Below the pieces are notes generated by a model. It was not told the origin of the DNA. It saw only the letters and a program-made list of their open reading frames with translations, and did no database searches. DNA of 64,000 nucleotides from Taiwanofungus camphoratus. Its lineage: Eukaryota > Basidiomycota > Agaricomycetes > Polyporales > Taiwanofungaceae. Location of the stretch: positions 1,798,001 through 1,862,000 of the forward strand of contig CP021225.1 in the NCBI GenBank assembly GCA_003999685.1, written 5' to 3'. This document shows, piece after piece, positions 1 to 25,683 of this stretch. Position 1 is the first letter of the stretch, and each line of letters opens with the position of its first letter. A program made the translations under genes and the position numbers.

Positions 1-2723
1 GTGAGTTCTCTGTCGACTACTACCATGAGCGCATTGAAGCCCTGTGACTCTGATAGATCAGTGATGAAGTCTACCAATATGTGAGAGAATGGCCTTGAAT
101 TTGGTTCTGTGGGGATGGCCATCAGGGGGGGTTTCGTGGGGTGTGTGTTGATCTTGCTCTCCTGGCATTTGGCGCACCCCTCAACATATTTCTCGATGAA
201 TGAAGACATTCCATGCCAGAACCAGTCCCTTCGGGCAATGGCCATTGTACCTTGTGCCCCTGGGTGTGCCATTGCTGGTGTGTCATGACAGAGTTGAATG
301 ACTTCTCGGCGCAGATTATCATCAGGGGGTACATAAACTCAGTTTTTGTATAAAATTAGTCCCTCCTGAATGTCCCAGTCTGCCAGCTTTGTGTGCGCAA
401 AGCCTGTGCCCTTGAATGGCGGTACCTTCCCCCGTTTTAAAGCGTCAATTGTCTCGATGACCATCCTGTCATGAGTACGACATTCACGTATCTTTTCAAT
501 GATTGCAGTGTTGGTGGCGTTGACAAAGAGGTCTGTTGGTAGCAGGATGACATCTTCGTTGTCATGTTTCCCTCCTGGGTGGTCAGGTCACCGGGAGAGT
601 GCATCGGTGACTATGAGTCGAATGCCTTTTTTGTTTAATAGTTGCAGGTCAAATTGTGACAGGAATAACTGCCATCGGGCCTGGCATCGGTTGAGTCGTT
701 GTGCTTCTCAGAAATAGGTGAGGTTCTTGTGGTCGGTGATCATCGTGACCGGGTGTCCACTTCCCTCAAGGTGGTGGCGCCATTCCTCAAGTGCTCGGAC
801 AATGGCCAGCAGCTCTCTGTCATATACTTGATAATTCCGCTCTGCTTCTTTCAGGCTCTTCGAGAGGAAAGCTATAGGGTGTAGCCGCCCTTCCTCATCA
901 AGTTGTTGAAGCACTGCACCAGTGGCTACCAGAGAGGCGTCGGCCTCAATGGTGAATGGTTTGGACGGGTCGGGCATGCGGAGGATAGGCATGCTCTGGA
1001 AACACCGTTTGAGCTCATCAAAGGCCTCCTGGCAGGCTTTGGTCCAGTTCCACTCCGCGCGCTTCTTCTTGATGACATTCAAGGGGTGAGCGATGTGGGA
1101 GAAGTTGTGGATGAAGCATCAGTAGTAGTTGGCGAGACCCATGAATCGTTCTACATCCTTGACCCTAGTAGGAATGGGCCAATCTGCGATTCCTGTCAGT
1201 TTGTCCTTGTCCATGTGCATCTGTCCAGGTGAGATGGTCATTCCCAAGAAGTCAACTTCGACGACATCAAATGCGCATTTCTCTGGCTTTACAAATAGGT
1301 CCCGTTCCTGCAGCCATTGTAGGACACATCTGGTTCGTTCTCGGTGGGCTTCCATATTGTCAGAGAAAATGAGGATGTCGTCCATATAGATCGCGATCCA
1401 CCCCTCGGTCAGCATGTCCTGGAATGCGTCATTCATCATTCGCTGAAACGTGGCCGGCGAGTTGCACATCTCAAAGAACATGACAGTGGGTTCGATGATC
1501 TTGTCCTGATTTCTATGTTTGACCATGAATGCTCCTTTCCATTGGTCGCCCTCTCTGATCCGGATGTTGTTGTACCCATTTCGGAGGTCTAATTTAGTGA
1601 ACACAGTGGCCCTTTGGAGCCTGTCGATTAGCTCTCCTATGAGGGGTAAGGGGTAGGCATCTTTGATTGTGCCCTTGTTCAGGTATCGGTAGTCCTGGCA
1701 CGGGCACAAGGTACCATCCTTTTTTTTGACAAAAAAGGCTGGTGACACCATTGGTGAGTTCGATTCCCAGAGATAGCCCTTGGCCAGGTTCTCTTCCAGA
1801 AATTTGTCCATCGCCACCTGTTCATTTGGAGACAAAGAAATTACGGCACATTTCCTGGGGACAAAGTCTGGCCTTAATTCAATGGCATGGTCCCAGGGCT
1901 TGGATTCTGGGAACCGGTTGGCGGCCTCCTTTTCAAACAGCCGTTTATAGTCCCACAGGTATTCTGGGACGAGGTCTTCTACGGATGGGGGTGGGTCCTT
2001 GGGGATCACCAATTCCGTGAGCTCTGGGGCATTCCATACCATACGTGGGGAGTCAGAGAAGTGTGTTAGTCGATTGAGCCCTACTTGTGGGGGCTTTAGG
2101 GCCTGCAGTAGCCTGTCTTCACATGTGAGCGGCTGCTCTTTCTGTTGGAAAATCCCCAGAACCCCTTCTCCTTGTGTGTAAGCACACATTATGTCCGAAA
2201 GCTCCTCATCGTCTTCATGAATGGAAGCTCGACACAGGGGAATTCCGTCTGTCGTGGGTTGGCTCATGACCCAGGCATAGTATCCTTGCCATTCTGTGAG
2301 TCGAGCTTGGTCAATCTCGAGCGTCCCTTCTACCCAGTCAATGCGTGGGTTGACTTGTGCGAGCCAGGGGTTGCCGAGTACTACATCGAGCATTTCAATG
2401 TTTGAGACGTAAAAGTTGGTTGGGATGTCGTTCCCCTCTAATCGTATACTCCCTTCGACTCTGTGGGTAATCAGTCCCCCTTTGTTTGTAGAGCCATCAA
2501 TGGTGGTTGAGGTTACTGTCCTGGGAAGCGGTCGAGTGGGGAGTCCCCACTTCCTTACAAAGTCGGGGTGAATTAGGTTGGCGTCAGCCCCACTATCCAA
2601 TAAGGGGCATGCAGCGACGGCTTTCTCTCCTACTACGATGTATCCTGGTAGATAAAGTGTATTGCGCTTGCGCGTTCCGGTAATTACATTTCGTACAGAG
2701 AGTTTAGGCGACTCGTGCGTCAC
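1..2723 (-). pseudogene. pol: Element A pol: protease, RT, RNase H, partial integrase, broken by stops
   Basis: Visible motifs, in order: the protease [10 protein letters not shown] motif; an RT with [14 protein letters not shown] and YMDD; RNase H with [25 protein letters not shown] and TDHKNL; and the HHCC zinc-binding region of integrase. In-frame TGA codons lie at 1119-1121, 708-710, 588-590 and 339-341. At the first and third, element B has CGA. At the second B has CGG, and at the fourth AGA. The copy therefore cannot make a full polyprotein. The core of integrase continues beyond the window start. Length and order match a normal chromovirus pol. Confidence 0.9.
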
Positions 2724-2759
2724 GTCGGGTCGCCTTACAGAAAATCCGCAAAGCCGTGG

Positions 2760-3549
2760 TGCTGAGAGAAGTGGGGGAATCTGACTCCTTTCGTTTCTTG
2801 CCCCTGCTCCTCCTGTTCAGAGGCTTCATCATCCGCCTCGTTTTTATCTTTCATGTTGGCCCTTCGGTTTGGGGGTCCGGTTCCCCGACCTGAGGTTCAC
2901 TCTGGACAGTCTTTGGCCAGGTGCCCCTTATTGTGGCATTTGTAACAGAAGCCCATCCTTCGGTCTTGCAAGCGCTGATGGTCTGGCTTCCCACTGTCAA
3001 ATGCCCTTGTTGCGACTCGTGGAGGGGTTTTCAAAGTTCTTTGAGTGGCATCGATGGCCTTGTTGTTTCGATAGGCCCGGTCCCGTTGGGCAGCAGCTTC
3101 CTTCCATCCTTCTAGGGTTGTGGGGGCTACATCTCGTTCCATGATTCGGACTCGCATGGTGCTGGGTAGTTTTTCTCGATACCAGGCCATAAGGGCACTC
3201 TCTTCGGTGATTTCTGCCCTGCGGGCCAGTCGGTCGAACTCCTCGTTGAAATCGGCAATGGGTTTGTCGTAGGTGTAGACCAAGTTCCGTAGTCCGATGG
3301 CTGCAGAGACCTCCTCCTCTATTACCCCGAACCTTTTGATGAACTCGAGAGCGACATTCCTGAAAGTGCCGTACCCCCAGCTCGCTCCTCGGATGAGGGG
3401 ATGGGGTTCGAGTGCCTTTTCGGTAAGAGTATCGGCCCAAGCACCGGCATGGCCTTCGAGGTGGCCAAGGAAATTGCCGACCTTTTCTCGTTCAGAAGCG
3501 GAGGCCCATCGCTCGGTGTCGAATCTTCAGGCAAATTGGATGAGGAAGT
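2760..3549 (-). pseudogene. gag: Element A gag, C-terminal two thirds, interrupted by element B
   Basis: On the minus strand this encodes the capsid part of gag and a CCHC zinc knuckle ([14 protein letters not shown]). TGA stops at 3527-3529 and 2897-2899 stand where element B has CGA arginine codons. The N-terminal part of the same gag is at 11,368-11,763. The two join exactly at the GTCAG duplicated on both sides of element B, so one gag gene was split by the insertion. Confidence 0.9.
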
Positions 3550-3554
3550 GTCAG
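3550..3554. repeat. Target-site duplication of element B (left copy)
   Basis: GTCAG directly precedes the 5' LTR of B and is repeated at 11,367-11,371 directly after the 3' LTR. A 5-bp duplication is usual for Ty3/gypsy integrases. Removing B and one GTCAG restores a continuous gag sequence in element A. Confidence 0.93.
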
Positions 3555-4055
3555 TGTTACTGTCGGATAGGACCAGAGACGCGTTCGTTCATTTTTTCCC
3601 TTTGTTTGTCACACCATGGACACGTGGCACCCCTTCCACACCTTATTTACCCAGATTGACTGACGGGCCGACCGTCCCCGCTTACGCCATGGTAGTTATG
3701 TACTTTCGGGCCGCTGACTCCTCTCACCTTATGCAGTCACTGGGGGGCTGCTAGTATACCTGGGGGTTGACGGTGGCAGTATAAAGGGGGGTCCCACTGT
3801 TGGAGGTTCCCCTAGTCGTATTCTCTTCGTTCATTCTTTCCTGAAGTGTACTACGCATTAGTACCAATACACGCTAGTCTTCACACATCTCCTTGCATCT
3901 CAAGAAGCCCGTAAAAGACTATCACGACTACATAGGGCTTGTAGTTGAAGACTACCGAGGATTGTGACTTGTCGTCACCGTCGCTCCTCTTCGACCCTTC
4001 GCTGCACACCGCTCCAAGCTTCTGCAGCATTATCAGGGTGAACCCCCCGGTAACA
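3555..4055 (+). repeat. 5' LTR of element B
   Basis: The repeat begins TGTTAC and ends GTAACA, giving 6-bp inverted termini. It differs from the 3' LTR at 10,866-11,366 in four places by my reading. It contains a TATA box (3780-3786), and about 34 bases after the start of that box the sequence AGTCGTATTCT, which is complementary to the region just after the LTR. Confidence 0.95.
3780..3786 (+). promoter_or_regulatory. TATA box of element B 5' LTR
   Basis: TATAAAG lies 34 bp before AGTCGTATTCT, the distance expected from TATA box to transcription start. The same arrangement is present in the 3' LTR and in the LTR of element A. The start site is inferred, not seen. Confidence 0.6.
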
Positions 4056-4068: not shown

Positions 4069-4950
4069 CCACAAACCCGAACCCGTCCAGGTTCGAGAGG
4101 TCACAAGAAGACAGTGCCTAAAAGACCCGTATCGGTCTCGAAGAAGGCGAGGTCAGCGTACTCATAGGATTAGTACTGATCACCACGGATTATCAACGAC
4201 CTTTTGATATCGACTACGAACAAGAAGAAGAGCTGGATCACGCAGCATTTGACCCTACTCTCCCGACTTTAGAAGAGGTCCTGGATCGAGCTGAGCGCAA
4301 CCTCAGAGCCATTCTCCACGCCGATAGTTCCACCAGTTTCCTCCCAGCTGAACAGAGGGAGCTGATCCTTTACACCCGCTCCCGCATCTCCAGAGCCAGC
4401 GACGCTTGGCAAGCTGTATTAGAAAATCACGACAGGCTGGCAAGTAGGGAAGGGAGCCGACCGCTACCTCCCACTCCCTCTGAAGATTTTGACGAAGTCC
4501 TTGACCACCATATCCTCACTGCTCAGAAGGTGCTCTCAAACCCACGTTTCTCATTTCAGTTGGCCGTTCCCATAATCGTGAACCTATATCAAAGGTTACT
4601 GAGCGCCCGAGATTTCTATCGCCGGTGGCAAGCTGGATCCATCCTCCAAAACGAGGCGGAGGTCGACCCTGACGTGCGCCGGGAAGGCTCATCGCTATCA
4701 AGCGGAGAACAATCGGGACGTACACCGACATTACACGAAGACTTCTAACTGGAGGGTCTGCTCAACGCAACCGTGCCCTCACCGCTACGACTCTGCACTC
4801 TACAGGGGAAGTGATTTCGAACCTTGTACTCCAACCAATCGTGCCCTCATCCAGGCCCGCTGGACAACCGTTGACGAAACCAACCCACCCTCCGACGAAG
4901 GCTCCAGCTCAGAACTGACCGATCCTGACATTGAACGGACAGAACGACAA
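4069..4950 (+). other. Element B leader with an open frame lacking an ATG
   Basis: Between the LTR and the gag ATG one frame is open from about 4121 to 4748 without a usable ATG. It has protein-like composition, rich in acidic residues and leucine. Past it, the gag frame itself is open from about 4602, again with no ATG before 4951. The corresponding leader of A (11,764-12,658) has the same layout. It may be an upstream extension of gag made by splicing or frameshifting, a decayed coding region, or just untranslated leader. Confidence 0.45.
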
Positions 4951-6252
4951 ATGGAGACTGAAGGGACAGGAAAAACATCCCCTTCCACCCCGGAAACACC
5001 CCGTGGCTTGAGCTCTTTCCGATCAGGAATAGGGGAATCAGGGCCACCGCCTGACGATGGGCTGGGGGAAGAAGGCCCCCTCGAGGGAGGACCACCTTAT
5101 GATGAGAGTGGAGGACCCCCAGGAGGACCACCTGGTGGAGGAGGACCACCTGGCGGAGGAGGACCACCTGGTGGAGGAGGACCACCTGGCGGAGGAGGAC
5201 CACCTGGCGGAGGAGGACCACCCGGCGGAGGAGGAACACCTGGCGGAGGAGTGCCCGGTGGAGGAGGACTACCCGGTAGAGGAGGACCACCTGGGGGAGG
5301 AGGACCCCCCGGGGGAGGACCTCCTGGATGGGGGCAGCCTTCTGGAGGAACGCCCCTCCCACAGGGAGCTGCACGGGTACCAGACCGAAAAGAGCCAGAA
5401 ATTACTAAGTTCTCTGGAAAGCGAGAGGATGCCCGACACTTCCTCATCCAATTTGCCCGAAGATTCGACACCGAGCGATGGGCCTCTGCTTCCGAACGAG
5501 AAAAGGTCGGCAATTTCCTTGGCCACCTCGAAGGCCATGCTGGTGCCTGGGCCGATACTCTTACCGAAAGGGCACTCGAACCCCACCCCCTCATCCGAGG
5601 GGTGAGCCGGGGGTACGGCACTTTCAGGAATGTCGCTCTCGAGTTCATCAAAAGGTTCGGGGTAATAGAGGAGGAGGTCTCTGCAGCCATCGGACTATGG
5701 AACTTGGTCTACACCTACGACAAACCCATTGCCGACTTCAATGAGGAGTTCGACCGACTGGCCCACAGGGCAGAAATCACCGAGGAGAGTGCCCTCATGG
5801 TCTGGTATCGAGAAAAACTACCCAGCACCATGCGAGTCCGAATCATGGAACGAGATGTAGCCCCCACAACCCTAGAAGGATGGAAGGAAGCTGCTGCCCA
5901 ACGGGACCGGGCCTATCGAAACAACAAGGCCATCGATGCCGCTCAAAGAACTTCGAAAACCCCTCCACGAGTCGCAGCAAGGGCATTTGACAGTGGGAAG
6001 CCAGACCATCAGCGCTTGCAAGACCGAAGGACGGGCTCCTGCTACAAATGCCACAATAAGGGGCACCTGGCCAAAGACTGCCCAGAACGAACCTCAGGTC
6101 GGGGAACAGGACCCCCAAACCGAAGGGCCAACATGAAAGATGAAAACGAGGCGGATGATGAAGCCTCTGAGCAGGAGGAGCAGGGGCAAGAAACGAAAGG
6201 AGTCAGATTCCCCCACTTCTCTCAGCACCACGACTTTGCGGATTTTCTGTAA
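4951..6252 (+). CDS. gag: Element B Gag polyprotein
   Basis: Gag forms the particle that packages element RNA. The 433-residue frame starts at the first ATG in its frame. It begins with a Ser/Thr/Pro-rich segment, followed by a low-complexity run built on PPGGGG units (about residues 50-130). The capsid-like region starts near [20 protein letters not shown], and a CCHC zinc knuckle ([14 protein letters not shown], about residues 363-376) lies before an acidic tail. It ends with TAA, and pol follows in the -1 frame. The PPGGGG array is longer here than in element A. The true start may lie further upstream, since the frame is open before the ATG. Confidence 0.88.
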
Positions 6253-6263
6253 GGCGACCCGAC

Positions 6264-7448
6264 GTGACGCACGAGTCGCCTAAACTCTCTGTACGAAATG
6301 TAATTACCGGAACGCGCAAGCGCAATACACTTTATCTACCAGGATACATCGTAGTAGGAGAGAAAGCCGTCGCTGCATGCCCCTTATTGGATAGTGGGGC
6401 TGACGCCAACCTAATTCACCCCGACTTTGTAAGGAAGTGGGGACTCCCCACTCGACCGCTTCCCAGGACAGTAACCTCAACCACCATTGATGGCTCTACA
6501 AACAAAGGGGGACTGATTACCCACAGAGTCGAAGGGAGTATACGATTAGAGGGGAATGACATCCCAACCAACTTTTATGTCTCAAACATTGGAACGCTCG
6601 ATGTAGTACTCGGCAACCCCTGGCTCGCACAAGTCAACCCACGCATTGACTGGGTAGAAGGAACGCTCGAGATTGACCAAGCTCGACTCACAGAATGGCA
6701 AGGATACTATGCCTGGATCATGAGCCAACCCACGACAGACGGAATTCCCCTGTGTCGAGCTTCCATTCATGAAGACGATGAGGAGCTTTCGGACATAATG
6801 TGTGCTTACACACAAGGAGAAGGGGTTCTGGGGATCTTCCAACAGAAAGGGCAGCCGCTCATACGTGAAGACGGGCTACTGCAGGCCCTAAAGCCCACAC
6901 AAGTAGGGCTCAATCGACTAACACACTTCTCTGACTCCCCACGTATGGTATGGGATACCCCAGAGCTCACAGAATTGGTGATCCCCAAGGACCCACCCCC
7001 ATCCGTAGAAGACCTTGTCCCAGAATACCTGTGGGACTATAAACGGTTGTTTGAAAAGGAGGCTGCCAACCGGTTCCCAGAATCCAAGCCCTGGGACCAT
7101 GCCATCGAATTAAGGCCAGACTTTGTCCCCAGAAAATGTGCCGTAATTCCTTTGTCTCCAAATGAACAGGCAGCGATGGACCAATTTTTGGAAGAAAACC
7201 TGGCCAAGGGCTATCTCCGAGAATCGAACTCACCAATGGCGTCACCGGCCTTTTTTGTCAAAAAAAAGGATGGTACCCTGCGCCCGTGCCAGGACTACCG
7301 ATACCTGAACAAGGGCACAATCAAAGATGCCTACCCCTTACCCCTCATAGGAGAGCTAATCGACAGGCTCCAAAGGGCCACTGTGTTCACTAAATTAGAC
7401 CTCCGAAACGGGTACAACAACATCCGGATCAGAGAGGGCGATCAATAG
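6264..7448 (+). pseudogene. pol: Element B pol, part 1: protease and RT fingers/palm, stopped by TAG
   Basis: The frame is -1 relative to gag, with no clear ATG of its own, as expected for a product made by frameshifting. It encodes the aspartic protease ([10 protein letters not shown]) and the first half of reverse transcriptase ([33 protein letters not shown]). At 7446-7448 TAG replaces the TGG tryptophan codon present in element A (GDQWKGAF), and the frame continues open on the other side. This is one G-to-A change. Unless read through, it separates protease from the RT active site. Confidence 0.88.
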
Positions 7449-9071
7449 AAAGGAGCATTCATGGTCAAACATGGGAATCAGGACAAGATCGTCGAACCCA
7501 CTGTCATGTTCTTTGGGATGTGCAACTCGCCGGCCACGTTTCAGCGAATGATGAATGACGCGTTCCAGGACATGCTGGCCGAGGGGTGGATCGCGATCTA
7601 TATGGACGACATCCTCATTTTCTCCGACAATGTGGAAGCCCACCGAGAACGAACCAGACGCGTCCTACAACGACTGCAGGAATGGGATCTATTTGTGAAG
7701 CCAGAGAAATGCGCGTTCGATGTCGTCGAAGTTGACTTCTTGGGAATGACCATCTCACCGGGACAGGTGCACATGGACAAGGACAAACTGGCAGGAATCG
7801 CAGATTGGCCCATTCCTACTAGGGTCAAGGATGTGGAACGATTCATGGGTCTCGCCAACTACTACCGACGCTTCATCCACAACTTCTCCCACATCGCTCA
7901 CCCCTTGAATGTCATCAAGAAGAAGCGCGCGGAGTGGAACTGGACCAAAGCCTGCCAGGAGGCCTTTGACGAGCTCAAACGGTGTTTCCAGAGCATGCCT
8001 ATCCTTCGCATGCCCGACCCATCCAAACCATTCACCATTGAGGCCGACGCCTCTCTGGTAGCCACTGGTGCAGTGCTTCAACAACTTGATGAAGAAGGGC
8101 GGCTACACCCTATAGCTTTCCTCTCGAAGAGCCTGAAAGAAGCGGAGCGGAATTATCAAGTATATGACAGAGAGCTGCTGGCCATTGTCCGAGCACTTGA
8201 GGAATGGCGCCACCACCTTGAGGGAAGTGGACACCCAGTCACAGTGATCACCGACCACAAGAACCTCACCTATTTCCGGGAAGCACAACGACTCAACCGA
8301 CGCCAGGCCCGATGGCAGTTATTCCTGTCACAATTTGACCTGCAACTATTAAACAAAAAAGGCAGTCGACTCATAGTCGCCGATGCACTCTCCCGGCGAC
8401 CTGACCACCCAGGAGGGAAACATGACAACGAAGATGTCATCCTGTTACCAACAGACCTCTTTGTCAACGCCACCAACACTGCAATCATCGAAAAGATACG
8501 TGAATGTCGTACTCATGACAGGATGGTCATCGAGATGATTGACGCTTTAAAACGGGGGAAGGTACCGCCATTCAAGGGCACAGGCTTTGCGCACACAAAG
8601 CTGGCAGACTGGGACATTCAGGAGGGACTAATTTTATACAAAAACAGAGTTTACGTACCCCCTGATGATGATCTGCGCCGAGAAGTCATTCAACTCTGTC
8701 ATGACACACCAGCAATGGCACACCCAGGGGCACAAGGTACAATGGCCATTGCCCGAAGGGACTGGTTCTGGCATGGAATGTCTTCATTCATCGAGAAATA
8801 TGTTGAGGGGTGCGCCAAATGCCAGGAGAGCAAGATCAACACACACCCCACGAAACCCCCCCTGATGGCCATCCCCACAGAACCGAACTCAAGGCCATTC
8901 TCGCACATATCGGTAGACTTCATCACTGATCTACCAGAGTCACAGGGCTTCAATGCGCTCATGGTAGTGGTTGATAGAGAACTCACCAAGGGCATTGTGC
9001 TCATACCCTGCACCAAGAACATAGATGCGGTGGGGACGGCAGAGGCCCTACACCTCAATGTATACAGGTGA
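7449..9071 (+). pseudogene. pol: Element B pol, part 2: RT palm, RNase H, integrase N-terminus
   Basis: Same frame as part 1. It holds the RT YMDD box (IAIYMDDILIFS); RNase H with its acidic residues ([34 protein letters not shown]); the HHCC zinc-binding domain of integrase (H and H near LCHDTPAMAHPG, then CAKC); and the first catalytic Asp of integrase (VDFITDLP). A TGA at 9069-9071 interrupts between VYR and YGLPDRMISD, where families of this type usually have a tryptophan. That suggests a second TGG change, here to TGA. Confidence 0.88.
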
Positions 9072-10382
9072 TATGGCCTACCTGACCGGATGATATCCGA
9101 CCGAGGGCCACAGTTCGCAGCGGCTGCATTTCGAGAATGGTGTAAGCTGACAGGAGTCAAGGCGGCAATGTCCACCGCCTACCACCCCCAATCAGATGGG
9201 AGTACAGAACGGGTCAACCAGGAACTGGAGGCGGCCTGGAGAATCCTATGCGCAAATAACCCCCACACCTGGGTCAAACACATCCCCGAGTTTGAATTCG
9301 CACACAACCAGGTGCCACATGCTGGAAGGAAGGAATCGCCATTCAAGCTCACCATGGGGTACGACCCGAAGGCCATCGGATCTCCACGACCCTCCAACAA
9401 ATACCCCACGCTCCAAGACCGCCTGACCCAGATCTCTGAATCCCGCAAAGAGGCTCTTGCAGCGCAAGAGCTAGCCCAGAAGCTGATGGAGGAACGAACC
9501 CCTTTTCCCTGGAAACCTTTCCAGGAAGGTGACAAGGTTTGGCTAGAAGCCACAAACCTCTGGCTAAGGACAATAAGTCGGAAATTTGACCCAAAGCGGC
9601 TTGGGCCCTTCAAGATCATGGAAGCCAAGGGGCCACTGACGTACAAGCTACAGCTCCCGAGAACCTGGAAGATTCACCCGGTGTTCCATGCATCGCTGCT
9701 CACCCCATACAGGGAAACAGCAGAACACGGACCCAACTTTCTGAAACCACCACCTGATCTGGTCGAGGGGGAAGAAGAGTACGAAGTCGAGGCCCTCCGT
9801 GGGCATCGTGCCCGATGTGGGAAATGGGAGTTTCTCATCAAATGGAAGGGATGGCCGGTCTCTGCCAGCACCTGGCAGAAGGAAGATGATCTACGGCATT
9901 CCCCTGACCTGCTGAGGCGTTATAAGAAGGCAAACCACCTAGGCATCAACCCAGTCGACAACCGTTCAACTGCCCTGCAAGGAGCCATTCTGCAGCACTT
10001 CAAAGCCGCCTCACACCATGTCCCATCGAACCAACGCCGCCCGAGCCCGCCTTGCCGCCTCCATCCTCACCGCAGGGAATGCTCGCACACTGAACCCCTT
10101 TCTTCGAGGACCGCAGAACCTCCCCAACTTCGCCGAGGGGATTGTTGTCCCCCTACCTCGCCAAGCAACATCTGGCCTCGCCGCCGACTTTCTGACCCCC
10201 GCCGACCGTCTCGGATGGGTGCTGGCCAACGAACGACTACGTCCGGCGGTGGACACCGCCCTCGTTGTCTGGCCCGATCTTGCGGCCCAGGTTGCCATTT
10301 TTCGACATCAGGCCGAGGTCGTCTTACACCTCGATCAGGTAATAAGGGGGTACAGAGGGGAGAGGGAGAAGGGAGAGCATGA
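9072..10382 (+). pseudogene. pol: Element B pol, part 3: integrase core and chromodomain
   Basis: Continues pol in frame after the TGA. The second and third integrase catalytic residues are present (MISDRGPQF and the Glu in STERVNQELE), so the DDE triad is intact. A GPFKI...HPVFHASLL segment follows, then a chromodomain (YEVEALRGHR...KWEFLIKWKGWP...STWQKEDDL), which in chromoviruses directs integration to marked chromatin. The frame runs on to 10,382, overlapping the start of ORF3. The functional end is probably near 9,950, soon after the chromodomain. Confidence 0.88.
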
Positions 10383-10824
10383 CGAAGCCAAGTGGTGGGC
10401 CAGCCCCATCCGGGAAATTGGTATATCGTACTGGCAGGCCTGTAATGCAACGCGCTCCCATCTAAATTTCCTCCTTCGCACCGACGTCGTCTCCGCCCTC
10501 GAGCATCTCCTACCACCCTCCTCCGTCATCACCCGCCCAGCCCCCTCCACGCAGGACGAGTGGACAGTTTGTCTCCACCCCGAGTGCCGCCCCCTGAACC
10601 GATGGGCTGGGGCCTGTGAGTTCTGCATGGGCCTCGATCACGTTGCTGCTGACTGCATCCACCGGCCACGACTGGGGGAGCCGGCTGTTGAGCCCTTCGT
10701 CCCGCCTCGCTGTCTGGATTGTTTCGCCGACGATCACGACACCGACCAATGCCCCAAGGCAGGGGCCGCCTGGTCGGAAATCAGTGGGTCGAAGCAGCCT
10801 GACGAGGAAGCTACCAGGTCATGA
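10018..10824 (+). CDS. Element B accessory ORF3, two CCHC zinc knuckles
   Basis: A 268-residue ORF with its own ATG lies between the integrase and the 3' LTR, in the +1 frame relative to pol, and overlaps the end of the pol frame. The N-terminal two thirds show no motif I recognise. The C-terminal part holds two perfect C-x2-C-x4-H-x4-C knuckles: CEFCMGLDHVAADC (about residues 201-214) and CLDCFADDHDTDQC (about 231-244). No signal peptide or membrane segment is seen, so it is not an envelope gene. It may be a second nucleic-acid-binding, Gag-like protein, or a captured host fragment. It ends with TGA 40 bp before the 3' LTR. The role is unknown. Confidence 0.75.
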   Translation: MSHRTNAARARLAASILTAGNARTLNPFLRGPQNLPNFAEGIVVPLPRQATSGLAADFLTPADRLGWVLANERLRPAVDTALVVWPDLAAQVAIFRHQAEVVLHLDQVIRGYRGEREKGEHDEAKWWASPIREIGISYWQACNATRSHLNFLLRTDVVSALEHLLPPSSVITRPAPSTQDEWTVCLHPECRPLNRWAGACEFCMGLDHVAADCIHRPRLGEPAVEPFVPPRCLDCFADDHDTDQCPKAGAAWSEISGSKQPDEEATRS

Positions 10825-10865: not shown

Positions 10866-11366
10866 TGTTACTGTCGGATAGGACCAGAGACGCGTTCGTT
10901 CATTTTTTCCCTTTGTTTGTCACACCATGGACACGCGGCACCCCTTCCACACCTTATTTACCCAGATTGACTGACGGGCCGACCGTCCCCGCTTACGCCA
11001 TGGTAGTTATGTACTTTCGGGCCGCTGACTCCTCTCACCTTATGCGGTCACTGGGGGGCTGCTAGTATACCTGGGGGTTGACGGTGGCAGTATAAAGGGG
11101 GGTCCCACTGTTGGAGGTTCCCCTAGTCGTATTCTCTTCGTTCATCCTTTCCTGAAGTGTACTACACATTAGTACCAATACACGCTAGTCTTCACACATC
11201 TCCTTGCATCTCAAGAAGCCCGTAAAAGACTATCACGACTACATAGGGCTTGTAGTTGAAGACTACCGAGGATTGTGACTTGTCGTCACCGTCGCTCCTC
11301 TTCGACCCTTCGCTGCACACCGCTCCAAGCTTCTGCAGCATTATCAGGGTGAACCCCCCGGTAACA
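10866..11366 (+). repeat. 3' LTR of element B
   Basis: The 501-bp copy matches the 5' LTR except for four transitions that I could count. It ends with GTAACA and is followed by the GTCAG target duplication. Confidence 0.95.
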
Positions 11367-11367
11367 G

Positions 11368-11763
11368 TCAGGCATCTTCTCGTTTTCCAGAGAACTTAGT
11401 AATTTCTGGCTCTTTTTGGTCTGGTACCCGTGCAGCTCCCTGTGGGAGGGGCGTTCCTCCAGAAGGCTGCCCCCATCCAGGAGGTCCTCCCCCAGGGGGT
11501 CCTCCTCCCCCAGGTGATCCTCCTCTACCGGGTAGTCCTCCTCCACCGGGCACTCCTTCGCCAGGTGGTCCTCCTCCACCAGGTGGTCCTCCTGAGGGTC
11601 CTCCGCTTTCATCATAAGGTGGCCCTCCCTTGAGGGGGCCTTCTTCCCCCAGCCCATCGTTGGGCGGTGGCCCTGATTCCCCTACTCCTGATCGAAAAGA
11701 GCTCAAGCCACGGGGCGTTTCTGGGGTGGAAGGGGATGTTTTTCCTGTCCCTTCAGTCTCCAT
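11368..11763 (-). pseudogene. gag: Element A gag, N-terminal part
   Basis: Starts with the same [20 protein letters not shown] sequence as B gag and ends at KREDA, where B was inserted. The Pro/Gly array is much shorter than in B: B carries a run of uninterrupted PPGGGG units, whereas A has only scattered ones. The copy cannot be expressed whole, because its remainder lies 7.8 kb away. Confidence 0.9.
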
Positions 11764-12658
11764 TTGTCGTTCTGTCCGTTCAATGTCAGGATCGGTCAGT
11801 TCTGAGCTGGAGCCTTCATCAGAGGGTGGGTCGGTTTCGTCAAAGGTTGTCCAGCGGGCCTGGATGAGGGCATGATTGGTTGGAGTACAAGGTTCGAAAT
11901 CACTTCCCCTGTAGAGTGCAGAGTCGTAGCGGTGAGGGCACGGTTGCGTTGAGCAGACCCTTCAGTTAGAAGTCTTCGTGTAATGTCGGTGTACGTCCCG
12001 ATTGTTCTCTGCTTGATAACGATGAGCCTTCCCGGTGCACGTCAGGGTCGACCTCCGCCTCGTTTTGGAGGATGGATCCAGCTTGCCACCGGCGATAGAA
12101 ATCTCAGGCGCTCAGTAGCCTTTGATATAGGTTCACGATTATGGGAACGGCCAACTGAAATGAGAAACGTGGGTTTGAGAGCACCTTCTGAGCAGTGAGG
12201 ATATGGTGGTCAAGGACTTCGTCAAAATCTTCAGAGGGAGTGGGAGGTAGAGGTCGGCTCCCTTCCCTACTTGCCAGCCTGTCGTGATTTTCTAATACAG
12301 CTTGCCAAGCGTCGCTGGCTCTGGAGATGTGGGAGCGGGTGTAAAGAATCAGCTCCCTCTGTTCAGCTGGGAGGAAACTGGTGGAACTATCGGCGTGGAG
12401 AATGGCTCTGAGGTTGCGCTCAGCTCGATCCAGGACCTCTTCTAAAGCCAGAAGAGTAGGGTCAAACGCTGCGTGATCCAGCTCTTCTTCTTGTTCGTAG
12501 TCGATATCAAAAGGTCGTTGATAATCCGTGGTGATCAGTACTAATCCTATGAGTACACTGACCTCGCCTTCTTCGAGACCGATACGGGTCTTTTAGGCAC
12601 TGTCTTCTTGTGACCTCTCGAACCTGGACGGGTTTGGGTTTGTTGAGTCGTATTCTAG
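11764..12658 (-). other. Element A leader region
   Basis: This is the equivalent of 4,056-4,950 in element B, with the same ATG-less open frame and the same post-LTR sequence AGAATACGACT. I see no other gene. Confidence 0.7.
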
Positions 12659-13158
12659 TGTTACCGGGGGGTTCACCCTGGTAATGCTGCAGAAGCTTGG
12701 AGTGGTGTGCAGCGAAGGGTCGAAGAGGAGCGATGGTGACGACGAGTCACGATCCTCGGTAGTCTTCAACTACAAGCCCTATGTAGTCGCGATAGTCTTT
12801 ACGGGCTTCTTGAGATGCGAGAAGATGTGTAAAGACTAGCGTGTATTGGTACTAATGCGTAGTACACTTTAGAAAAGGATGAACGAAGAGAATACGACTA
12901 GGGGAACCTCCAACAGTGGGACCCCCCTTTATACTGCCACCGCCAACCCCCAGGTATACTAGCAGCCCCCCAGAGACTGCATAAGGCGAGAGGAGTCAGC
13001 GGCCTAAAAGTACATAACTACCATGGCGTAAGCGGGGACGGTCAGCCCGTCAGTCAATCTGGGTAAGTAAGGTGTGAAAGAGATGCCGTGCATCCATGGT
13101 GTGACAAACAAAGGGAAAGAAAAAATGAACACATCTCTAGTCCTACCCGACGGTAACA
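12659..13158 (-). repeat. 5' LTR of element A
   Basis: 500 bp with TGTTAC/GTAACA ends, homologous to the LTRs of B but clearly more diverged from them than they are from each other. The first bases outside it are GCGAG, probably one copy of the target duplication; the partner copy is outside the window. Confidence 0.9.
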
Positions 13159-14632
13159 GCGAGACCAATGGTTGAGCCAGATGCGAGAAGCTCTTTATGA
13201 ACCGGCGGTAGAAGTTCCCGAAATCAACGAACGACCGAACCTCCCTGAGGTTCTTAGGTATCAGCCAGTCCTTGATGCTGGCTACCTTGATGGGGTCCAT
13301 GGCGAGCTGTCCAGGTCTGATGATCATGCCTAAGAATTTGACTTCTTGCATGTCGAATTTGCATTTCTCTGGTTTGAGATACAGGTCAGTATCTCTAAGT
13401 TGCTCGATAACTCGCCATGTTCGTTTTTTATGCTCCTCAGGGTCTGTCGAGTAGATAAGGATGTCATCCATATAGATTGCCAACCATCCTTCCTTGAGCA
13501 TGTCTGCGAAGACCGTGTTCATCATCCGTTGGAACGTTGCCGGTGAGTTGCACATTCCGAAGAACATTACCAGGGGTTCGTAGAATGAGGGAGGTCCTTC
13601 TCCCACTGCTGGAACACCAAAAGCCGCTTTCCATTTGTCTCCTTCCTTGATGCGAAGGTTGTTGTATCCCTGATGAAGGTCCATCTTGGTGAAGATCGTG
13701 ATGTTATTGAGGCGTTTCAGAAGCTCTGTTACGAGGGGGAGGGGATATCTGTCCTTGATTGTCCCCTCGTTGAGTTCCCTGTAGTCCTGGCATGGTCGGT
13801 ATCCGCTGTCCTTCTTATCCACAAAGAAGAACGGGCTTGCGAGTGGCGATTTGGATGGTCGGATGTACCCTTTCTCTATGTTTTCTTCAAGGAACTTGTC
13901 CAGTTCTGCTTGTTGATCCCGGTTAAGAGAGTATGTCGTCTGTTTGAAGTCCTTAAAATCCGGCTTGAGATTTATCTCATGGTCGAACTCCGAATGCTGG
14001 GGAAGCCTTGCTGCTTTGGCTTTGTCGAACACCGGGAGGAGATCATGGAGGTACTCGGGGACGAGTTCCGTGACTGGTTTCTCCTTCTTCTTAGCGTGTT
14101 CCTTGATAGCGAGTTCCGTGGACGTGGTGAGTCGACCAATGTCGTGTGTGACCTGCCAGATGAGACCGTTTCTGGGACGACGATAGGTTCCGTCGAGAGG
14201 GTACTCTTTCTCTGTGAGTGGGGTGTCTTGATACGCCAGGTATGAGTCCTGTCCGTATGTCGTGATTTGATCATCTCCTTCAATGAACGCTATGATCAGT
14301 TCATCATCGTCGATCATTTCCATCGCCTGATCCAACGTGATACTGTTGACTGATTCTTCTACCAGGGGTGCGACTGGGATGTTGCGGTGTGCTGTCTGCC
14401 TAGACATGTCTGTTGTCGGTAAGACAGGAGACATGGTGTCGATCACCTCAAAGTCTCCTTCGTCCTCTACCTCCTCAATGGTGGGCTGCCATTGTTGCTT
14501 GAGGCATCTATCTCGTTTGGCGAGAAATGCCGCTACCTGTGGACAAGGGGGTGCTGACCAGTCTACCTCATAGTCTAGCATGGGATCCAGGGCTTCTTCC
14601 TGTTCTCGTTCAGCTAGTTTCTTCAGCTCCAA
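13159..14632 (-). pseudogene. pol: Element C reverse transcriptase, truncated by element A LTR
   Basis: On the minus strand this gives a standard gypsy RT: FFVDKKDSGYRPCQDYRELN, TKMDLHQGYNNLRIKEGD and the YMDD box (AIYMDDILIYS), then the thumb up to YRRFIKSFSHLAQPLVSLL. There the reading frame runs into the A LTR; residues after this point belong to the LTR. A TGA at 14,643 separates it from the protease frame and probably arose from CGA (Arg). Confidence 0.88.
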
Positions 14633-25190: not shown

Positions 25191-25683
25191 AATGTGCCAG
25201 AACCCAGAGCGACCACTGGACCATTCCACCAGGGACTGATGGAGCGCTTCACCCCTCCACCCATTGTACCACCTCCCCCTGCTGCCCAACCCTGCTCTCC
25301 ACCTCTCTCCTACCACTGCAAATGGTTTGACCAACACACCAACTCACGCCTCAATGATAATGACTGGGATGATGATGTCCTGGAACTATACAGTGATGGT
25401 GAGCAATAAGGGACTTGCTTACCAGAGGTGGTGGCTGCAACCTTGCTGGGTCCTTACCCAGAGGCCACATGCTTGCATGGTACACAATGAAACACTCACA
25501 TTTAAAAGTTCAAGATAAAACACCCTCAATATTGCTTATCTGATGACACCAGCAGTCTAAAGCAACCAGTCAGAGATACTTGAAAATAAGCAGCTGATGC
25601 ATTTTTGCTGACTCACCACTAGCATTTGTACATCATACAATCACAATAACCTTAAGGGTCTTGAGACAATACAATGATATGAT
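25191..25683. other. Spacer of the foldback structure
   Basis: Unique AT-rich sequence between the copied arm end and the right arm. Only short frames are seen, with no recognisable protein. Confidence 0.4.

What the first reader, a model, noticed from the sequence alone, without database searches (positions are those of the whole stretch)
10018..10824. Third ORF with two zinc knuckles after the integrase
A 268-residue ORF with its own ATG sits between integrase and the 3' LTR in another frame. It has two perfect C-x2-C-x4-H-x4-C knuckles and no membrane segment. Standard chromoviruses end after the chromodomain. A second nucleic-acid-binding protein made from the 3' end could be a packaging factor, a silencing counter-measure or a captured gene. 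This is the best candidate in the window for an undescribed component.
Basis: partly seen in the sequence, partly recalled or inferred. Interest (0 to 1): 0.75.

Follow-up and report, generated by a model that had tools for sequence, protein, structure and literature searches.

The report
Third zinc-knuckle gene in fungal chromoviruses
The retrotransposon carries a real, selectively preserved third gene for a zinc-knuckle protein between its integrase and its end, and nearly all related elements examined in this fungus have such a gene in the same place, which points to an overlooked working part of these elements.

Summary
The ORF is real (10018-10824, 268 codons, two CX2CX4HX4C knuckles) and sits in a complete nested chromovirus (LTRs 3555-4055 and 10866-11366, target duplication GTCAG). 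It is under purifying selection: dN/dS 0.17 against a 69%-identical relative (bootstrap 0.11-0.25), close to gag (0.15). Where it overlaps the pol tail, its own frame gives 0.13 and the pol frame 2.5. Against 27 close copies, 62 synonymous and 28 nonsynonymous differences were seen (30 and 58 expected without selection). It is not peculiar to this family: a sister family (26% identity, one knuckle) and two further families have a third ORF at the same place, and 148 of 150 scored chromodomains are followed within 233 bases by a third-ORF match. The N-terminal part has no relative found in Pfam, the PDB or gag; only the knuckle resembles nucleocapsid. Most likely it is a separate nucleic-acid-binding accessory protein acting on element RNA or cDNA (inferred); an anti-silencing role is the main rival. 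How it is translated is unsolved. No other fungal genome and no structure prediction were available. A 2010 survey already noted an unexplained 'additional ORF' in a figure legend.

The parts
10018..10824 (+). ORF3: 268-aa third gene of the chromovirus (called family A here)
   Evidence: ORF; purifying selection; copies
10069..10551 (+). N-terminal domain shared with family B ORF3 (about residues 18-178); no known relative found
   Evidence: blastp A vs B, E 2e-12; no match; only the knuckle
10615..10656 (+). zinc knuckle 1, CEFCMGLDHVAADC; its C, C, H and C are invariant in the seven ORF3s of alignment A1
10711..10752 (+). zinc knuckle 2, CLDCFADDHDTDQC; present in the A-lineage ORF3s aligned except one decayed copy (L013), absent in B
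9780..9929 (+). chromodomain at the end of pol, directly upstream of ORF3
   Evidence: PF00385, E 1.8e-11
6267..10382 (+). pol frame (RT, RNase H, integrase, chromodomain), broken here by TAG 7446 and TGA 9069; the tail after the chromodomain overlaps ORF3 and shows no constraint of its own
4951..6252 (+). gag with Retrotrans_gag domain and its own single knuckle CYKCHNKGHLAKDC
4122..4748 (+). open frame upstream of gag (called ORF0 here), about 74% identical in three A1 relatives
3555..4055 (+). 5' LTR
   Evidence: 4 differences of 501 from the 3' LTR
10866..11366 (+). 3' LTR; the element is flanked by GTCAG on both sides

Best explanation
ORF3 is a genuine third gene of this fungal Ty3/Gypsy chromovirus lineage, encoding a separate CCHC-knuckle protein with a lineage-specific N-terminal domain (shown: open frame, selection, conserved place). 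Most likely it works as an accessory, nucleocapsid-like protein: the knuckles bind element RNA or cDNA while the N-terminal domain binds a partner (Gag, integrase or a host factor), helping packaging, reverse transcription or delivery of the cDNA (inferred). It is probably made from its own ATG on a separate, perhaps spliced, message, because in families A and B the ATG lies upstream of the pol-frame stop in another frame (inferred).
For: Purifying selection between families and within family A, at a level near gag (0.171 against 0.154). The ORF3 frame, not the pol frame, is constrained in the overlap (0.126 against 2.47). The first knuckle is invariant in the seven A and B ORF3s aligned although A and B share only 26%. 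A third ORF with knuckles follows the chromodomain in four families and a third-ORF match follows 148 of 150 scored chromodomains. A profile search of the PDB returns retroviral nucleocapsids first, weakly (E 0.058-0.23).
Against: The PDB match is weak and knuckle-only, and the fourth match is a helicase-like protein. Gag already has a knuckle in A, and the ORF upstream of pol in C has one too, so a second nucleocapsid is not obviously needed. Family A ORF3 is acidic (pI 5.9; A1 5.1), unlike typical nucleocapsids, though B, C and D are basic. No RNA, protein or structure data. Splice sites were not demonstrated.
Confidence: 0.5

Rival explanations
1. ORF3 is a counter-defence or regulatory protein: the knuckles bind element DNA or RNA in the nucleus or cytoplasm and block silencing or repeat-directed mutation.
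For: ORF3 changes much faster than pol between sister families (26% identity, against about 70% for pol); many older copies carry TGA stops, as expected of C-to-T mutation of repeats; family A protein is acidic.
Against: Whole-gene averages show purifying selection in every pair and within family A; site-wise positive selection was not tested; no Pfam match.
Confidence: 0.27
2. ORF3 is a relocated or duplicated Gag: its N-terminal domain is a diverged capsid and the knuckle its nucleocapsid. In family B, which shows no capsid domain upstream, it could be the only capsid.
For: Domain order (domain then knuckle) is Gag-like; family B has only about 100 aa before its first knuckle, and the same N-terminal part is found in relatives at 54-59% (L012, L017, L019).
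Against: hhalign and blastp find essentially only the knuckle in common with gag. A has an ordinary gag as well, and C has a gag-like ORF (weak DUF4939 match and a knuckle). D ORF3 (98 aa) has no room for a capsid.
Confidence: 0.12
3. ORF3 is a host gene captured by the element.
For: No relative of the N-terminal domain in Pfam.
Against: The listed matches in the genome fall in multi-copy sets, although flanks were read only for those fetched; two N-terminal types without detectable relation share the same place. Other fungal genomes could not be searched.
Confidence: 0.07
4. Chance open frame, or a by-product of the pol tail.
For: The frame overlaps pol for 121 codons.
Against: dN/dS 0.126 in ORF3 frame and 2.47 in pol frame over that overlap; over the first 540 nt, 87 third-position substitutions against 29 and 23 at the first and second.
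Confidence: 0.02
5. Envelope-like or membrane protein, as in many third ORFs.
For: Position between pol and 3' LTR.
Against: No hydrophobic segment of membrane type in the A, A1, B, C and D sequences tested (highest mean 1.76 in A1); knuckles are not an envelope feature (recalled).
Confidence: 0.02

Closest known systems
Fungal chromoviruses (Ty3/Gypsy with chromodomain; Novikova et al. 2010, PMC2864245, passages and a figure legend seen)
   Same: LTRs, gag, pol with RT, RNase H, integrase and chromodomain. The legend of its Figure 3 lists 'add. [quoted passage not shown]
   Different: Its text says the majority of full-length elements had one or two ORFs. The figure and tables were not visible to me, so whether its additional ORF is this one is unknown; the passages seen ascribe no knuckles to it.
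Retand elements with TRP28 ORF (Vicient 2025, PMC11963269, abstract and outline seen)
   Same: Conserved extra ORF between pol and 3' LTR, thought able to bind DNA, function unknown.
   Different: Plant, non-chromovirus, and the extra ORF is antisense; here it is sense, with CCHC knuckles.
Bdelloid rotifer LTR elements with ORF3 (Rodriguez et al. 2017, PMC5408684, passages seen)
   Same: Varied non-envelope third ORFs after pol, shared by lineages.
   Different: Those are esterase, exonuclease, coiled-coil, membrane or envelope types; none is a knuckle protein in the passages seen.
Retroviral nucleocapsid (for example 1a6b and 1u6p, returned)
   Same: CX2CX4HX4C knuckle.
   Different: Nucleocapsid is cleaved from Gag (recalled); ORF3 is a separate gene with an unrelated N-terminal domain, acidic in family A.

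Membership tests
Chromovirus (the host element) | LTRs with target duplication | tested here: met
   501-bp LTRs, 4 differences, GTCAG on both sides
Chromovirus (the host element) | RT, RNase H, integrase and C-terminal chromodomain in pol | tested here: met
   the copy in the window is broken by two stops
Gag protein | capsid domain | tested here: not met
   by sequence only: no Pfam gag match; hhalign and blastp to gag find essentially the knuckle only
Gag protein | CCHC knuckle | tested here: met
Nucleocapsid protein | strong sequence relation to known nucleocapsids | tested here: inconclusive
   E 0.058 at best, knuckle only; LIN28 knuckles, E 3.5 at best
Nucleocapsid protein | nucleic-acid binding and chaperone activity | not testable with these tools
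   needs purified protein
Envelope-like ORF3 | membrane segment | tested here: not met
Retand TRP28 extra ORF | antisense orientation | tested here: not met
   ORF3 is on the same strand as pol; orientation of TRP28 from the abstract of PMC11963269
Ty3/Gypsy capsid fold | N-terminal domain folds like capsid | not tested

The most novel reading that the evidence does not exclude
In this fungus essentially every chromodomain retrotransposon lineage carries a third gene, just behind the chromodomain, for a free-standing knuckle protein. Two N-terminal types (A/B and C/D) with no detectable sequence relation occupy the same place, so the gene is a standing, replaceable module of these elements, comparable in role to the accessory genes of complex retroviruses. 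Family B, which shows no capsid domain, may use it to parasitise capsids of other families.
Probability: 0.3. Interest if true: 0.75.

Novelty: new variant of a known kind. Interest (0 to 1): 0.55.

Why it matters
Chromoviruses are usually described as gag plus pol. A selected third gene, matched behind nearly all scored chromodomains of one genome, means that a component of their life cycle has been passed over, at least in this fungus. It makes a direct question testable: does a retrotransposon without an envelope need a second, separate knuckle protein, and for what. The sister families A and B, alike in pol and strongly different in ORF3, give a ready comparison.

Tried and rejected
Translational coupling: the two family D copies first read (L070, L073) have an ATGA stop-start overlap between pol and ORF3, and a 21-base pattern search found 71 places with up to 3 mismatches, 0 for the control pattern. 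So this start is not reliable and reinitiation is not claimed. In family C the ORF3 ATG follows the pol stop TAA by about 42 nt in the same frame, which differs from A and B.

Common origin of all third ORFs: A and B are homologous (E 2e-12) and C and D are homologous over the double knuckle (E 3e-13), but A/B against C/D gives only the first knuckle, and the N-terminal parts alone give hhalign probability 0.1%.

Relatives elsewhere: IMG/VR scans with two alignments found none; no other fungal genome is held. The Retrotrans_gag search of the genome gave only 6 matches and none at this window's own gag, so it says nothing about gag in the other families. One pol comparison ('pol seg2') was out of frame and was dropped; it was redone (0.05). 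The A/B, B/B1 and B/B2 dS values are saturated (above 1.6), so those ratios are rough. Script one search failed on a missing import.

Full report
Observation. The ORF at 10018-10824 is present as described: 268 codons, ATG start, sense strand, in another frame than integrase and overlapping its ORF (which ends at 10382) by about 365 nt. It has two perfect CX2CX4HX4C knuckles at residues 200 and 232; in 20000 shuffles of the same residues one motif or more appeared 6 times and two never. No membrane segment was found. The element has LTRs at 3555-4055 and 10866-11366, which differ at 4 of 501 positions, and GTCAG on both sides. It is nested in an inverted copy of the same family. Its pol frame has two stops, TAG 7446 and TGA 9069, while gag (4951-6252) and ORF3 are open.

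Copies. A protein search of the window's own genome (33.2 Mb, 15 contigs) gave 126 matches, a lower bound. Of 51 matches that cover all 268 residues (79% identity or more), 29 have no stop, and most stops in the other 22 are TGA, as expected from C-to-T change of repeats (my count from the table). More distant relatives at 60-71% follow, and a second family at about 26%. The second family (B) has 41 matches over its full 251 residues at 88% or more, 29 of them stop-free (my count).

Selection. Between the window ORF3 and a relative with 69% identity (A1, L009) dN/dS by Nei-Gojobori is 0.171, bootstrap 0.109-0.246. Gag of the same pair gives 0.154 and pol 0.05-0.06. The other pairs give 0.15-0.22 (several are saturated or involve copies with stops). 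In the 363 nt that overlap the pol tail, the ORF3 frame gives 0.126 and the pol frame 2.47, so ORF3 and not the pol tail is the coding frame there. Third positions lead for transversions as well as transitions (56 of 113 and 73 of 117), so repeat-directed C-to-T mutation alone does not explain the pattern. Within family A, I held 28 loci (the best 28 of the 51 full-length matches); one of them, L001, is the window copy itself, so 27 others were compared with it. They show 92 distinct differences: 62 synonymous, 28 nonsynonymous, 2 stops, against 29.9, 58.5 and 3.6 expected from the same mutation spectrum without selection.

Generality. Family B has the same layout: the ORF3 match begins 98 nt after the chromodomain match, ORF3 overlaps the pol tail and, in L016, where LTRs were located, ends just before the 3' LTR. 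Its ORF3 has one knuckle, aligned with knuckle 1 of A, whose C, C, H and C are invariant in the seven ORF3s aligned. Exceptions occur in decayed relatives: one B relative (L019) has a stop within knuckle 1, and one A relative (L013) has lost a cysteine of knuckle 2 and has no ATG at the start. Four stretches taken behind other chromodomains gave two more families: C with a 469-aa ORF3 in L071 (450 aa in L072) and D with 98 aa (L070, L073), both with a CX2CX4HX4C knuckle followed by a second one that I read by eye as CX2CX6HX4C. Third-ORF dN/dS is 0.11-0.28 for C (three copies) and 0.22 for D (one pair, 17 differences, so weak). C has 37 full-length matches, 23 stop-free (my count). A search for chromodomains scored 150 of 271 candidates. 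Using third-ORF places (for family A 6 of its places; for B, C and D most of them), 148 of the 150 have a third-ORF match, whole or partial, starting 12-233 nt downstream on the same strand: D 67, C 44, B 33, A 4; two have none.

What the protein is. Pfam has no match for A ORF3; B shows knuckle matches below the curated cut-offs and C a clear one (E 6e-8). The PDB search with the window sequence gave only LIN28 knuckles, E 3.5 at best, and with the A/B profile retroviral nucleocapsids at E 0.058-0.23. Profile comparison with gag finds the knuckle alone; pairwise blastp at E up to 10 adds, apart from matches at the knuckles, only scattered short matches of E above 0.3. A and B are homologous over residues 18-215 (E 2e-12); C and D over the double knuckle (E 3e-13); the two types share only the knuckle. 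Pol of A and B is about 70% identical and ORF3 26%, so ORF3 diverges much faster. Charge differs: pI 5.9 in A and 5.1 in A1, 8.6-9.7 in B, C and D. Gag in the other families: an open ORF just upstream of pol in one C element (L076) has a knuckle and a DUF4939 match under the cut-off (E 1.8e-5); I take it as gag by place and because DUF4939 is, as I recall, gag-related. D was not examined for gag.

Mechanism. Shown: a selected third protein with knuckles at a fixed place. Inferred: the knuckles bind element RNA or cDNA, and the N-terminal domain gives partner specificity; the protein supports packaging, reverse transcription or cDNA delivery. A counter-defence role explains the fast divergence equally well and is kept as the main rival. 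Expression is open: in A and B the ATG (contexts CACACCATGT and CACTACGATGT) lies upstream of the pol-frame stop in another frame, which argues against simple reinitiation and for a separate or spliced message. CAG sites that could serve as splice acceptors lie 22 nt (A), 15 nt (A1) and 41 and 18 nt (B) upstream of the ATG, which by chance is not unusual. A reinitiation reading based on ATGA in family D failed its frame test.

Known work. Nine searches of the paper library gave no description of a knuckle-bearing third ORF in fungal chromoviruses among the listings and the passages I saw; most subscription papers are not held. [quoted passage not shown] PMC2774666 (passages) says that a clade of fungal chromoviruses carries additional genes, one of its two references there being a dUTPase paper. 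PMC3248453 (passages), PMC5408684 (passages), PMC11963269 (abstract and outline), PMC12440569 (passages), and PMC3441728, PMC12477816, PMC4469406 and PMC5870257 (passages) were also consulted. Hence 'new variant of a known kind'.

Organism. Not tested. Size and contig number resemble Heterobasidion irregulare TC32-1 (15 scaffolds, 33.6 Mb, as given in a passage of PMC5870257); this is only a guess.

Limits. One genome; no transcript, protein or structure data. dS is high in several pairs. The counts of stop-free copies are read from the tables, not by a script.

Noticed in passing
L016:1748-8319 (family B), also L015, L018: Family B chromovirus has a long open pol frame and, in L016, 571-bp LTRs 99.8% identical, but only about 100 aa before its first knuckle and no capsid domain in Pfam. 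Relatives at 54-59% (L012, L017, L019) have the same N-terminal part, and A gag gave no capsid match in them: a capsid-less lineage may have persisted by using capsids of others.
   Followed up: partly
4122-4748: An open frame of 208 codons upstream of gag, in another frame, about 74% identical in A1 relatives: the gag region may be expressed by splicing or frameshift.
   Followed up: partly
7446 and 9069: The window copy has in-frame TAG and TGA in pol; copies without the second stop exist. LTRs are 99% identical, so it is a recent insertion of a pol-defective copy or was mutated after insertion.
   Followed up: partly
G000:C5:1.55-1.83 Mb and C9:1.16-1.34 Mb: Many of the divergent relatives of A and B ORF3 (about 53-70%) lie in these two regions (others on C8, C11 and C13), perhaps centromeres or other heterochromatin.
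   Followed up: no
2000-3554 and 11367-13165: Flanks are an inverted older copy of the same family; an ORF3 copy with one TGA lies on the minus strand just outside the window (C6:1796166-1796969) and probably belongs to it.
   Followed up: no
25191-25406: Fragment about 54% identical to the C-terminal part of family C ORF3 (C6:1823191-1823406).
   Followed up: no
G000:C4:472990-473280: A family D third-ORF match lies in an open frame of 476 aa, much longer than usual.
   Followed up: no
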